Source: Bolinopsis microptera (lineage: Eukaryota > Ctenophora > Tentaculata > Lobata > Bolinopsidae). From it: 64,000 bases of DNA. The DNA is taken from positions 8,677,669 through 8,741,668 of the forward strand of contig NC_087072.1 of NCBI RefSeq assembly GCF_026151205.1, read 5' to 3'. Positions 9,749 to 51,700 of this stretch are shown here, piece by piece (within the stretch, counting starts at the first letter, position 1; each line of letters opens with the position of its first letter). The position numbers were made by a program, and so were the translations under genes. The notes under the pieces were generated by a model. That model ran no database searches. It was not told the DNA's origin and saw only the letters and a list, made by a program, of their open reading frames with translations.

Positions 9749-9784
9749 ATGAAAGAAAGCTCAAGTGCTGACATTTTAAACAAT
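9749..9784 (+). CDS. LARP4: LARP4-like coding exon 1 (start codon)
   Basis: Encodes MKESSSADILNN. ATG at 9749-9751 is preceded in frame by TAA two codons upstream, so translation cannot start earlier in this exon. Donor GTAAGT at 9785; exon phase 0. Confidence 0.65.
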
Positions 9785-12700
9785 GTAAGTTTCTAGTAGA
9801 TTTAAAATATATATATATTTTCTAGCTAACATATTACTAGTTTTTATGACTTAAGTATTACATACTATTATGTTATATAATAGTAATACCTCAAATCATG
9901 TTCTGATGCTTTTCTATTTTTCAGTCTACCACACTGACACTAAACCCTAATGCTGCTACCTTCATATCTTACAGGTAATTTTGTTTTTATTCAAATCTGT
10001 AATTGATGAAAAGGCTGCGTAACTTTTTAACGTTACTTTTATTCAAATTGCACATAATCATAAGGTGATCATAATATATATAATATTTGTAAGTGGTAAA
10101 CATAATTAATTTAGTTTCCCGGATTTTGAAATTTATGGTACAAAAATGTCTTCAAATTTGGGCTCAACGTTATAATACTATTTTCAATAGCTCATAATAC
10201 GTTGTTTTGGAATAGTAGAACCTTGGAAATTGCTGTAATTTTGCGCAAATATGATCTGATCCAGGCTCTAAAATGTTAAACATGCTCTGAGCTATACCAT
10301 GTCTCCTGCACGCTTAAGACTGATAATTTGTGAAATACATCTCAAGTTCAGTGAATAATGGAGTCATGAAACTTATGGAGCCTAAAGCTCTAACTTTGAT
10401 CTGTACAATAAATACCACATAAAACCGATTGCATGCTAATTGAAAGAGGAGTTATTTTGTTAGTCACAGTAACCGATGTTATCATTCATACGGATATTAT
10501 AGATATCTTTCAGTCCGTACGAATTATGTTAATACCACCTAATAAATCTATTAAATCCGTTTATATGGTTGGATCTATATTATAATATGTATATTATATA
10601 ATAGTTTTAAAAACTGTAGTCACGAATTATCAGCTAATCGAGAGAGAGAGAGAGAGAGAGAGAGAGAGAGAGAGAGAGAGAGAGAGAGAGAGAGAGAGAG
10701 AGAGAGAGAGAGAGAGAGAGAGAGAGGAGAGAGAGAGAGAGAGAGAGAGAGAGAGAGAGAGAGAGAGAGAGAGAGAGAGAGAGAGAGAGAGAGAGAGAGA
10801 GAGAGAGAGAGAGAGAGAGAGAGAGAGAGAGAGAGAGAGAGAGAGAGAGAGAGAGAGAGAGAGAGAGAGAGAGAGAGAGAGAGAGAGAGAGAGAGAGAGA
10901 GAGAGAGAGAGAGAGAGAGAGAGAGAGAGAGGAGAGAGAGAGAGAGAGAGAGAGAGAGAGAGAGAGAGAGAGAGAGAGAGAGAGAGAGAGAGAGAGAGAG
11001 AGAGAGAGAGAGAGAGAGAGAGAGAGAGAGAGAGAGAGAGAGAGAGAGAGAGAGAGAGAGAGAGTTGTATTTCAAGAAAATACTGTTTGTTACGGACCTT
11101 ATCTGAAAGTATGAAAGGCCCTCCACTTAGGCTTTGGAGGATCTACCAAATGCCCAAAGATGGGCAGATTGTAGTTATGAGAATTTCTAGAATAACAAAA
11201 CACGAAAAAGAATGTAGAAATGATCTGTATGCTCGAATTTTAAGCATATTCAGTGTTTGTTCTGTTTGAAAGCATTCAAATAAATTATTCCATATTTCCT
11301 AGAATATTTCTTTAATTGTGAGTACTCATAAGTAAGACTCTTCACTTTACTACAAGTGTGACCACAATATTACAACTTGCTTTTGCCACGTAAAATAATA
11401 TTCGTCTTAACCAACTTACCATTAATGCATTACTTTTACCCTGACGTAAAAGTTCATTACTCCCCAGTCTGTCCCTCTTTCAAACCATCCCGACGTTCTC
11501 AAAATGATCTGAGCTCCATTCATAAACTGTATTATATTGTGAGTATCCAACCGTTAAATATGCCGAATTTTATTTTATTTCAGTATTTATTTTAAATGGA
11601 ACGTACTGTACTACTACTTGTCGCTTTTTTTACATAATATTATATTATATATCTGAAATGATTATTTTAAGAGATCTTTTAGTTTTAAAGGCAAGAATTA
11701 CATCAAAAGTCCACCAGAATTTTATTTTATACCGATATATTTAACCCCAAAATCTCGAGTACACGTCACGTTCTTAAATACTTTTGTTCAAGTATCTTAG
11801 CATTGAGTATGTTGATTCCTGAAAAGTAAGCAAACCATGTTTATCTTGGCAATATTACCGATTTTATGAGGGATCCGTTTACTTCTAAAAGAGGCAGCTA
11901 CTTAAAATAAGGTCCACTGCATTGTAAATACTGGTCCCCACTGGTCTGTTTATGGAAGGTTTAAAATAGATATGATTGTAATGCGACGAAGATTGAGAGA
12001 GGCAATCGGGATAAGTTATGAATCAAACTTGATGTTCTTGCGCTGTTGGGCTCCTTAACAATACCATAAATTGGAGTAACTCTTTTTTAATATCCATCTT
12101 CTTCGAATCGGCACCGGGCGAATATTAATTAGTTCTCCCAAAGTACTGGTTTTATTTTGACCTGTCAACCTCGATATAAACTGGAGCGATTTTGCTTACC
12201 ACTAACTGCTGGTAAACGGTCCACTTAACAACCCACGCAGTTTTGTGATCAGTTGTTTTAGTCCCTCTCCCTCTCCCTCTCCCTCTCCCTCTCCCTCTCC
12301 CTCTCCCTCTCCCTCTCCCTCTCCCTCTCCCTCTCCCTCTCCCTCTCCCTCTCCCTCTCCCTCTCCCTCTCCCTCTCCCTCTCCCTCTCCCTCTCCCTCT
12401 CCCTCTCCCTCTCCTCTCCTCTCCCTCTCCCTCTCCCTCTCTCTCTCTCCTCTCCTCTCTCTCTCTCTCTCTCTCTCTCTCTCTCTCTCTCTCTCTCTCT
12501 CTCTCTCTCTCTTTCTCTCTCTCTCTCTCTCCCTCTCTCTCCCTCTCTCTCTTTCTATTCAAAGAAACATATCAACTTATCGAACCGAGCGCTATGATCA
12601 TAAAACAGCTCAATACTGTGAGGTTACCACTGACACCGGATTCTTTGACAATGCTTTCATTACATTTAAGCCATATAAGGAGCTTGATCCTTGGACAGGC

Positions 12701-48700: not shown

Positions 48701-51700
48701 GCAAGTATATTATAATAATAAGCATACCATATTTATAAGATTGTAACGAAGTCCTTGACAGAGAACCATGCTAATAGCCAGATCTCCCACTCAGTACTCG
48801 TGCTCTGCAGCAGCCACTTCCTCGACTTCCGGCTAATCATTGATGACACCACCCGTCAGGTCTTGCAACCAGCTGTCATAAACCGGTTGCGCAAGCAAGC
48901 AGTGCTGGCAGTGTGGTGCTGAGCACTGAGTTTAATAATATTAAAGCTGCAAGAACATGGGCACTGAACGTATATTATTGGAGCTCAACTCCCCTTATCG
49001 GACTAGCTGTAATGTTGAGTCATGATTCAGATTTAGAGCCATCGTTATCCTTTCGTGTGCAATTCCGATATAAATCGCGAGTATCGGCTATCCTCTTCGA
49101 GCATTTATTAAAATCGGAATTTTTTTTCATCAGCTAAATATAAAGTCCTTCTACATATTATTATAGCCTAATATGTTACATGTATGTATACTCGGTTAAT
49201 TTATTTATTTTTAGATTGAACTCTTTTTTGATGTGATCATGTTCTATCGTATCGGTCTTGTATAATGATAAATTAAAGAATACTCTCGCGTGGGTACCTA
49301 CGACGGAAATTTCAGTAAAAACCAGAAAATTCCAAGCCTGGATTAATTGCGAAGTATATCCAATCCAGGCCATGGTCTTAAATTGTCATAGTATATAATA
49401 ATAATAATATACCGATTGCCAAGGTTTGATGCCTAGGCAGTCGAGACCTCTTATTGAGACCCGATATAATAATAATAATAACGCTTTATTTGTATACCTA
49501 CCGCTATAAGTAGGTTTTAAATGAATGTATTATATATATATATGTATTTTCTTAATTTCTCTTAATTTTAGCCTGAAACTGTAAAAGTAAATCTAACCAT
49601 TTCCCTGCCCCTAGCACGCCGCTGTATGGTAAGTACACAGGAGAGGGATCATGCACAATGATGAGTGACTGTGAACAGTACGGCCCTAACGAGGACCACC
49701 AGTACGACGGCGGAGGAGGAGGAGGAGGAGGAGGAGGAGAGGGGCTGCCGCCACCACCTCAGTACATCCCTCCTCCCCCTCCTCTTCCTCCTCCTCCTCC
49801 CTACTTAGATCCTGGAGTGATGGGGTTTGAGCCGGGTATCCCGTATGAACCTGATACGGTGTACGAGACGGAGCAGATGTCTCTACCTGCCCCTCAACAC
49901 TATCCTACACTCTCACTCTGCGCTACTTATCCTTCCAACTTCTCCGCACAGGTTAGTGAGGTTGTTCTTATTTTATTGTTCTTTGTAGAGTCTTCTTGTT
50001 TTTTTGTTCTTTGTAGAGTCTTCTTGTTTTTTGTTATGCTTGTTTTGCAGGGTGCATTCAAATTCGAGATCAGACATTCTTAATTATTGAATTGTAGGGA
50101 TTTGACATATTAATATTAATTCCAAATACTTGATATTCGTCAGTTCAACTTCAATATAACTTCTATGACATTCTTGACAATATAATTGATAACGCCGAAT
50201 ATCACGAGGAGGGGTGGGAATGTAAAATTAATCGTCACAGTCGCAAATTTTGTTAATTTTCACTATAGCGAAAATATGTTGTTGCTCAATTTGTTACTAT
50301 TAATCCTAGAGTGTTCCCGATTTATACTTCCACCATTACCTCAATTATGCTGCGACATGAAATCGTTTAGCAGGAAGCTCTTTGCGGTACCAGTGGCTTT
50401 GATGTGAACATAAATGGCAACGAAAACGTTTGTTGCGAAACGTTTGACAAGTTCGTTCGGCATTGACGTAATCAATCATAATCATGAGAACGTGTCTTTC
50501 CCTGTCACCTCTTACCTATTTTAGGCACAAACTTTCGTCCCAAATCTGATTACTTAAAAGCTTAAAGATGCATTAAATATTGACCGCCTCGATGATGTCA
50601 ATGATGTATGTCTCGGAACGTTGACATATATAAATTGTGAATAACGTCAATCGCTCATTTCCTCTTTGGCAGACATGTTTGACAGGATTTTAACTCCTTG
50701 CCAATTTCAATATAATGTCCGTTGTGGCACCGGTTAAAGTTAAACACACCTGAGCCACTCGGCCTAGCCTCGGTGTTTTGTCTGGCACTATTTAAAGTAC
50801 TTGTGTGTACTTGTGTGTGCTGTAAGCTGTACTGTGTGTGCTGTTATATACAAACAAAGGACACGTTAATAATTATAATTGCACTGTTTTGTAATGTTTT
50901 GTTTCTGTATCGCCTGAATTCTTTTAAACATTTTAATGTACAAAGTTTCTCAACTTTTATCACAATGTCTGAGCCTGAGGAAATGATCGAAACCTGACCC
51001 GCATCAGATCGTAACATGGATTATATTATTTTATAACATGTTACATGTATCACGTAGGTTTGAACATTTACTAGGCCCCGTATTAATATAGGTTGGGACA
51101 GTTACTGGGGCCCATCATTGACAAGTAATTTCATAAATTATCGAAGTCCAACTCTTGGTCACGCACTAAATATTTAGCTTTAAATTTAGTGTAGTTGTTG
51201 TTATATATAAAGAATATAATATGTTATGTAAGTTATATATTATATAATATAAGTTATATAAGTGACCTTCGTCGCACCTAATAACTGGGTTTGACACTAA
51301 AACTAGGGAACAAGTGCTCCTCGCTGCAGTCCTCATCTGGTTTACAGTTGCCGGCACGTTAAATTATGCAATTTTAGAGTCCCTGATTACCGTCCCTGAT
51401 AAACCAGTGTAGCTAAAGTTGCTCCTTTGCTCCTATTTATTTTTCCTCCTTTCTGTAACGCGTACATTATGTTGTACTCAAGATTCGAGAACAATTATTA
51501 TTAGCGAAGGCTAGTGAATGCGACTCAAGACTCGTATAATATATATCCAGATGCAGATGTTCGCTTAGCTGGTATTAAGTTGCAACATTTGTTTCTCAAT
51601 TCATGCTATTGCTACTCAGACGCTTATTATGATATTATACGGTCGTACGGTCTATTTCTCACATAACATTGTGTTCTTTCGTTGTACTTTCGGTACACAG

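What the first reader, a model, noticed from the sequence alone, without database searches (positions are those of the whole stretch)
9749..49951. PAM2-encoding micro-exons of a LARP4-like gene lie 39.6 kb upstream of the rest
A 36-nt and a 50-nt exon at 9.75-9.97 kb encode MKESSSADILNN and STTLTLNPNAATFISY. They end at good GT donors and join the next exon in phase. The PAM2 motif is what a LARP4 protein should carry at its N-terminus, and the LARP4 body starts only at 49.6 kb. One intron would then be about 12 times the next largest in the gene.
Basis: partly seen in the sequence, partly recalled or inferred. Interest (0 to 1): 0.72.

Follow-up and report, generated by a model that had tools for sequence, protein, structure and literature searches.

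The report
Comb jelly LARP4's distant PAM2 exons
The short start of an mRNA-protecting protein gene, including the hook that should grip poly(A)-binding protein, appears to sit 40,000 bases ahead of the rest in what is probably a comb jelly; if real, the hook is much older than vertebrates, where a published account places its origin, and tiny remote exons may be why it was missed.

Summary
A 36-nt and a 50-nt coding exon (9749-9784, 9925-9974) encode an N-terminus with the PABP-binding core LNPNAATF and join in frame to a 12-exon LARP4 body (49615-61589) across a 39,640-base intron; the product is 1,114 aa. Of 5 stretches reading LNPNAxxF in the 264.65-Mb assembly, one lies here on the right strand; chance is about 3 in 10,000. 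No other owner was found. The join is inferred: no RNA was available, acceptor 49615 is weak in two of three splice models, and a PAM2-less start at 49658 may coexist.

The long intron is ordinary: it holds repeats and a high-copy mobile element. Less ordinary is the animal. The assembly (13 large contigs, 97.5% of it) fits the ctenophore Bolinopsis microptera, with one LARP4 found. Passages I saw tie LARP4's PAM2 to vertebrates, as a tryptophan variant with an altered La-motif pocket. Here PAM2 has phenylalanine and the pocket is conventional, so PAM2-LARP4 may be ancestral to animals. Existing Iso-Seq could settle the join.

The parts
9536..9597 (+). possible 5' UTR exon end (donor after 9597, then a 144-nt intron to 9742), or a rival coding start MENFSYSLKTIVSASYKLLP
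   Evidence: donor ranks 17 of 3700 GT sites; open frame to a phase-2 donor; inferred
9742..9784 (+). exon 1 as probably spliced: strong acceptor, in-frame TAA, start codon at 9749, coding part 9749-9784 MKESSSADILNN
   Evidence: acceptor ranks 10, 7 and 34 of 3944; donor ranks 5 and 34 of 3700; sequence
9925..9974 (+). exon 2, 50 nt, PAM2 core LNPNAATF (L18, A22, F25 of the joined protein)
   Evidence: acceptor ranks 291, 12 and 97 of 3944; donor ranks 47 and 20 of 3700; motif unique in window, one of 6 DNA matches in the genome
9975..49614 (+). 39,640-nt intron; tandem repeats 5,288 nt; dispersed high-copy element at 41569-41800
49572..49660 (+). rival start region: T-rich acceptor at 49572, in-frame TGA at 49574, start codon at 49658 (MMSDCEQ...), giving a PAM2-less LARP4
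   Evidence: acceptor rank 101 of 3944 gene-trained, 311 of 3944 generic; reading frame
49615..49951 (+). exon 3, first exon of the LARP4 body (Gly- and Pro-rich N-terminal region)
   Evidence: acceptor ranks 1008, 1535 and 93 of 3944
51962..52158 (+). exon 4, start of La motif
55450..55537 (+). exon 5, La motif
55839..55991 (+). exon 6, La motif end (VQIDSTGSKVRP) and start of RRM1
56490..56657 (+). exon 7, RRM1
56790..56948 (+). exon 8, end of La module and following region
57109..57179 (+). exon 9
58908..59018 (+). exon 10
59158..59614 (+). exon 11, with a CR1-like segment IDLEPSQFPPLSS near its end
   Evidence: likeness to CR1 is from recall
59761..60071 (+). exon 12
60189..60279 (+). exon 13
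60474..61589 (+). exon 14 to the stop codon; CR2-like PSYSEMAAK near its start (human core given as YAEVC)

Best explanation
This is the single LARP4 gene found in a non-vertebrate animal, most likely the ctenophore Bolinopsis microptera. Transcription starts at or before 9.6 kb. Two tiny exons supply a start codon and a canonical PAM2 motif, and one 39.6-kb intron is removed to join them to the La module and C-terminal body. [quoted passage not shown] Its La motif, which keeps the conventional pocket, would hold the 3' end of the poly(A) tail much as LARP1 does, so that the tail is shielded from deadenylation. Shown: the exons, splice signals, reading frame, La module, uniqueness of the motif in the window. 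Inferred: the splice across 39.6 kb, PABP binding, poly(A) binding, the species. The stated confidence is for the gene structure (PAM2 exons belong to LARP4), not for each step of the mechanism.
For: Fourteen coding exons with 13 GT-AG introns keep one frame to a 1,114-aa protein. Its La module best matches human LARP4 in the PDB: 172.9 bits, LARP1 54.5; 83 of 156 aligned residues identical. The PAM2 core is unique in the window and one of 6 DNA matches genome-wide. With L18/F25 it sits 3 residues from L15/W22 of human LARP4A (numbers from passages). Of 57 acceptors in 10,030-49,615 at least as good as 49615 by the generic matrix (itself counted), that join gives the longest open continuation, 156 codons; next are 81 and 63. 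The exon pair matched once in the genome; the La module matched three exons of this gene and one 38%-identical place elsewhere. VQIDSTGSKVRP matches 8 of 12 residues of VQVDEKGEKVRP, which is reported to mark PAM2-containing LARP4 (PMC6486636 passage). Assembly size and 13 large contigs fit B. microptera.
Against: No transcript was seen. Acceptor 49615 is C-rich with TAG and scores below all 11 body acceptors in both gene-trained models; six other AG sites between 49,200 and 49,700 outscore it. By the threshold, 944 acceptors compete, and six give a longer open continuation than 156 codons; they start at 10,605 and 10,620 and at 12,241-12,262, beside or in simple repeats, and at 19,845 in a 277-aa open frame. 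A T-rich acceptor at 49572 offers a PAM2-less start. Pfam PAM2 scores below its cut-off, and position 12 is Ser, not Pro. No second ctenophore was available to show conservation. PABP's MLLE domain could not be searched in this genome. Against the La-pocket part of the mechanism: restoring Tyr and Phe in human LARP4A did not tighten oligo(A) binding (passage).
Confidence: 0.84

Rival explanations
1. Two starts coexist. A distal promoter gives PAM2-LARP4; a promoter inside the giant intron, perhaps with a trans-spliced leader added at 49572, gives a PAM2-less LARP4 that begins MMSDCEQ at 49658. The intron would then be a switch for PABP binding. (This does not exclude the best explanation.)
For: Acceptor 49572 ranks 101 of 3944, is followed at once by an in-frame TGA, and has no in-frame ATG before 49658, as a leader exon would. 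Acceptor 9742 lies 7 nt before the upstream ATG and ranks 10, 7 and 34 of 3944. Spliced-leader trans-splicing in ctenophores is recalled, not looked up.
Against: 49572 ranks only 311 of 3944 in the generic model. No promoter or leader sequence was identified, and none was searched for.
Confidence: 0.3
2. The LARP4 body starts at 49658 only, and the PAM2 exons belong to another transcript.
For: Weak score of acceptor 49615 in two of three models and the better 49572 acceptor there.
Against: No gene at Pfam cut-off among 17 intron frames scanned; in the 9.7 kb before the window the gene-like frames, by eye, are on the - strand (7 of 10 frames of 100 aa or more); in-phase join, PAM2 position and family match would all be coincidence. 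Chance of a same-strand LNPNAxxF in this 40-kb stretch is about 3e-4 (my arithmetic from the 4 other matches).
Confidence: 0.08
3. A misassembly or a chance open frame; the exons are not expressed.
For: Long simple repeats in the intron are places where assemblers err.
Against: No N in the window, chromosome-scale contig of 26.2 Mb, one match for the exon pair, strong splice sites around two tiny open frames.
Confidence: 0.03

Closest known systems
Vertebrate LARP4A and LARP4B (PAM2w LARP4)
   Same: La motif plus LARP4-type RRM1; PAM2 near the N-terminus, L and aromatic residue 3 positions away from LARP4A numbering; CR1-like segment (likeness recalled)
   Different: Phe instead of Trp at PAM2 position 10; La-motif pocket keeps Tyr and Phe where human LARP4A has Cys and Met (alignment; residues named); one gene found instead of two
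LARP1
   Same: Conventional La-motif pocket pattern Q..YY...D...F (alignment); La motif that reads the poly(A) end (passage) is what I infer here too
   Different: La-module score far lower (54.5 against 172.9 bits); only the La domain matched in Pfam at E up to 1, no DM15; the genome has a separate place on C7 that I read as LARP1
PAIP2-like PAM2 proteins
   Same: Same PAM2 core; C1:13929066 in this genome encodes SNLNPNAAEFVPSFVRSR then stop
   Different: There the motif ends a protein; here it opens one that runs into a La module. The PAIP2 label is recalled

Membership tests
LARP4 | La motif | tested here: met
   PF05383 78.3 bits, cut-off 37.1
LARP4 | La module closer to LARP4 than to other LARPs | tested here: met
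   PDB best hit LARP4 172.9 bits, LARP1 54.5, La 49.2 and less
LARP4 | VQVDEKGEKVRP at the end of the La motif in PAM2-containing members | tested here: met
   8 of 12 identical, VQIDSTGSKVRP (criterion)
LARP4 | N-terminal PAM2 on the same mRNA | tested here: inconclusive
   in-phase exons 40 kb upstream; no RNA evidence
LARP4 | PABP-binding PBM after RRM1 | not tested
   only loosely charted in human LARP4A
LARP4 | CR2 RACK1-binding core YAEVC (reported as vertebrate) | tested here: inconclusive
   YSEMA in PSYSEMAAK: Tyr and Glu kept, Cys not; too short to score
PAM2 | consensus XXLXXXAXXFXP: L3, A7, F10 | tested here: met
   L18, A22, F25 (consensus)
PAM2 | P12 | tested here: not met
   Ser at position 12
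PAM2 | Pfam PF07145 cut-off | tested here: not met
   12.6 bits against 20, E 0.12; one paper calls automated recognition of PAM2 doubtful in low organisms (PMC12898128 passage)
PAM2 | binds the MLLE domain of PABP | not testable with these tools
   needs a peptide binding assay
PAM2w (vertebrate LARP4 variant) | Trp at position 10 | tested here: not met
   Phe
PAM2-acquired LARP4 | loss of La-motif pocket residues Y24 and F55 | tested here: not met
   Tyr and Phe kept in the alignments with LARP4 and LARP1; La numbering mapped through LARP1, human La itself was not shown

The most novel reading that the evidence does not exclude
The PAM2-LARP4 fusion is ancestral to animals, or nearly so, and was not acquired by vertebrates. 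Ctenophores keep the original form, a canonical phenylalanine PAM2 that only holds PABP together with a conventional La pocket that holds the poly(A) end. Vertebrates later changed Phe to Trp and lost the pocket, moving poly(A) binding onto the PAM2w region. The motif went unseen in invertebrates because it lies on tiny exons across a giant intron, which also gives a natural PAM2-less isoform.
Probability: 0.42. Interest if true: 0.66.

Novelty: new variant of a known kind. Interest (0 to 1): 0.48.

Why it matters
In the passages I saw, PAM2 on LARP4 is tied to the vertebrate lineages (PMC11565960) and its acquisition to a remodelled La motif (PMC6486636). A canonical PAM2 with an unchanged pocket in a comb jelly would break both links. 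It would make the order of events testable and give a natural contrast to the human protein, in which changing Trp22 to Phe strongly impairs poly(A) binding while MLLE is still bound in vitro (passage). It also warns that motif-bearing first exons of 30-50 nt far upstream are easily dropped from gene models, so 'absence' of short motifs in invertebrate proteins may be annotation loss (inference).

Tried and rejected
Another gene owning the exons: 17 open frames of 90 aa or more in the intron were scanned with Pfam and none reached a cut-off; the best was DUF6451 at 24.5 against 28 bits. These were part of 20 frames taken from the 61 listed (3 of the 20 lie outside the intron); the other 41, many of them simple-repeat frames, were not scanned, and exons shorter than 90 aa would be missed. 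No Rfam family reached its gathering score in the window.

A rival single first coding exon: one candidate with a donor as good as 9784's (9536-9597), 14 at a laxer threshold that 10 of the 11 body donors meet, in 5000-49610. The best lies in the same cluster and probably ends a 5' UTR exon.

Looking for the protein in other collections: no relative in genome contigs (67 stretches matched a pattern, none confirmed) or viral contigs (27 stretches, none confirmed), as expected for an animal gene. phmmer of the first 40 residues against the PDB found nothing up to E 10. A paper search for three short human-type PAM2 strings typed from recall returned three papers, none on LARP4 by title; the LARP4-type string was in none.

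The idea that the long intron is itself remarkable was rejected: tandem arrays make up 5,288 of 39,640 nt, and a 232-nt stretch recurs at 39 other listed places. Longer first introns are a general trend (PMC2518113 abstract), but this one is at least the second intron (a 140-nt intron precedes it), so that trend applies only loosely.

A CpG profile gave nothing I could use.

Literature gaps: Merret 2013 (RNA 19:36) and Deragon 2020 (RNA Biol), the primary sources on LARP4 evolution, are not held, so what they say about invertebrates is known here only through other papers and recall.
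Full report
What is there. Exon 1 (coding 9749-9784) ends AAT|gtaagt, exon 2 (9925-9974) ends CAG|gtaatt, and the split codon is completed at 49615. I extended the model to the whole gene: 14 coding exons, 13 GT-AG introns, one frame, 1,114 aa, stop at 61587-61589. The 39,640-nt intron is 12.0 times the next largest, 3,291 nt. Just before the start codon the exon holds an in-frame TAA and, 7 nt before the ATG, a strong acceptor at 9742, so the start is fixed and, if that acceptor is used, an exon or leader lies further upstream.

Is it LARP4? Yes. Pfam finds a La domain (78.3 bits, cut-off 37.1). Against the PDB the La module scores 172.9 bits with human LARP4, 54.5 with LARP1 and 49.2 or less with La, LARP7 and LARP6; 83 of 156 aligned residues equal human LARP4A. 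The genome search found one LARP4: three exons of this gene and one place of 38% identity. My reading of the other La-domain places is LARP1 (L003), La (L004), LARP7 (L005) and two LARP6-like copies (L001, L002) (names by inspection, recalled).

Is the PAM2 real? LNPNAATF is the only LNPNA..[FW] in six frames of the window and occurs in 0 of 60 simulated windows. A looser pattern, LN..A..[FW], is found 5 times here against 2.0 expected, so only the strict form carries weight. Over the 264.65-Mb assembly the degenerate DNA pattern has 6 matches against 2 for the reversed control; one of the 6 codes F first. Of the 5 that read LNPNAxxF one is this exon. One encodes SNLNPNAAEFVPSFVRSR followed by a stop, a PAIP2-like end (label recalled). 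The other three are in open frames of 72, 26 and 43 aa that I did not identify. From the 4 other matches, about 0.0003 would fall by chance on this strand in the 40 kb before the LARP4 body (my arithmetic; it takes no account of choosing the motif after seeing it). Pfam PAM2 reaches only 12.6 bits against a cut-off of 20, and position 12 is Ser where the consensus has Pro.

Splice sites, all three models. Two were trained on the gene's own 11 body sites, with and without (acceptors only) the first exon base; one is a generic matrix from recall. Donor 9784: rank 5 and 34 of 3700. Donor 9974: 47 and 20 of 3700. Acceptor 9742: 10, 7 and 34 of 3944. Acceptor 9925: 291, 12 and 97. Acceptor 49615: 1008, 1535 and 93. 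Both gene-trained models put 49615 below all 11 body acceptors; the generic one puts it within their range (22 to 1012). They disagree because the gene's own acceptors are mostly T-rich and this one is C-rich. In one search six other AG sites between 49,200 and 49,700 score higher than 49615.

Do the exons belong to LARP4? For: phase and frame; PAM2 L18/F25 against L15/W22 in human LARP4A (numbers from passages); one match for the exon pair; no gene at Pfam cut-off among 17 intron frames; in the 9.7 kb before the window the frames that look like genes are, by eye, on the - strand (7 of 10 frames of 100 aa or more), while a retroelement remnant lies on the + strand at 3.1-6.0 kb. Of 57 acceptors at least as good as 49615 by the generic matrix, the 49615 join gives the longest open continuation (156 codons; next 81 and 63). 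Against: with the gene-trained threshold 944 acceptors compete and six continue the frame for longer (162-186 codons): 10,605 and 10,620, 12,241, 12,253 and 12,262, beside or in simple repeats, and 19,845 in the open frame at 19.6-20.4 kb. I read that last frame as a reverse-transcriptase piece by eye; Pfam gave only a sub-threshold DUF6451.

A second start. Acceptor 49572 is T-rich and ranks 101 of 3944 in the gene-trained model, 311 of 3944 in the generic one. An exon beginning there has an in-frame TGA at 49574 and no in-frame ATG before 49658, so it could only be a 5' UTR exon for a PAM2-less protein starting MMSDCEQ. Both starts may be used. Ctenophores are known, from recall, to use spliced-leader trans-splicing; both 9742 and 49572 could be leader acceptors. 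This was not tested.

Which animal? The assembly has 264,652,675 bases in 232 contigs. Contigs C1-C13 are 15.2-26.2 Mb and hold 97.5% of it; of the rest I looked at C14, C15, C16 and C20, all 198,114 bases or less. B. microptera is reported at 265 Mb, 13 chromosomes and 346 scaffolds, Mnemiopsis leidyi at 248 Mb and 13 (table passage in PMC11797021); 13 scaffolds hold 97.23% of the B. microptera assembly (legend in PMC10232365). G000's 232 contigs differ from the 346, so the held copy is not the same in count. Gene-content tests of the phylum did not complete. I take ctenophore as very likely, species as likely.

How it probably works. LARP4 protects poly(A) tails and binds PABP (abstracts; passages). 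In human LARP4A the N-terminal region with PAM2w, not the La module, is the main oligo(A) contact, oligo(A) and MLLE exclude each other, and W22F weakens oligo(A) binding (passages) while still binding MLLE (passage). LARP1 instead reads the poly(A) 3' end with its La motif (passage). The window protein combines Phe at position 10 with Tyr and Phe at the two pocket positions that human LARP4A changed to Cys and Met (alignment; residue names). My inference is that here PAM2 serves PABP and the La pocket serves the tail end. Against that inference: putting Tyr and Phe back into human LARP4A did not tighten its binding to oligo(A) (passage).

What is known and what is new. The intron has tandem arrays (5,288 nt) and a 232-nt stretch at 41569-41800 that recurs at 39 other listed places, 99-100% identical, on 10 of 13 large contigs (40 of 686 candidates scored), so its size has an ordinary source. 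Longer first introns are general (PMC2518113 abstract), though this is at least the second intron. [quoted passage not shown] That 2019 paper speaks of an atypical PAM2 in vertebrate LARP4 and does not say in the passages I saw whether invertebrates have a typical one. The window contradicts the vertebrate-origin statement and the pocket link if the join is real. I saw no paper describing PAM2 in ctenophore or other invertebrate LARP4 in searches (30 of 58 listed; 4 of 4; 10 of 38; 10 of 10; 12 of 19; 10 of 11; 25 of 52), judged from listings and the passages named. The primary sources (Merret 2013, Deragon 2020) are not held, so the point may already be known to specialists.

Verdict. Observation confirmed; interpretation supported at about 0.84, unchanged after adding the weaker splice ranks; length of intron ordinary; canonical PAM2 on a non-vertebrate LARP4 is the part worth following, and existing Iso-Seq from the likely species can settle it.

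Noticed in passing
window 3124-5962 +: Non-LTR retrotransposon remnant; the 4355-5959 frame matches RVT_1 at 126.1 bits, with the element spread over three overlapping frames.
   Followed up: partly
window 41569-41800: Part of the intron recurs at 39 other listed places on 10 of 13 large contigs, 99-100% identical, so a recent or still spreading mobile element; a nearby stretch, 40868-41174, is 89% like one beside the LARP7-like place (L005).
   Followed up: partly
window 20729-22414, 35163-36031, 38334-39176: Large tandem arrays with 37-, 27- and 4-base units inside the giant intron.
   Followed up: no
window 14911-15074 and 58222-58385: A 164-base repeat, 98% identical, once in the giant intron and once in intron 57180-58907.
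   Followed up: no
window 43607-44580: Three to four diverged repeat units spaced about 285-320 bases.
   Followed up: no
L001 and L002 (G000:C5): Two LARP6-like open frames of 429 aa, about 450 kb apart on one contig with equal scores (L001 read, L002 not read): perhaps a recent duplicate.
   Followed up: no
L011 1169-8876 -: Tandem copies on the - strand just upstream of the window that look like galactose-3-O-sulfotransferases (by eye).
   Followed up: no
G000:C8:13462225, C12:5937387, C12:12408395: Three further LNPNAxxF matches in short open frames of 72, 26 and 43 aa, possible PAM2 exons of other genes or chance.
   Followed up: no
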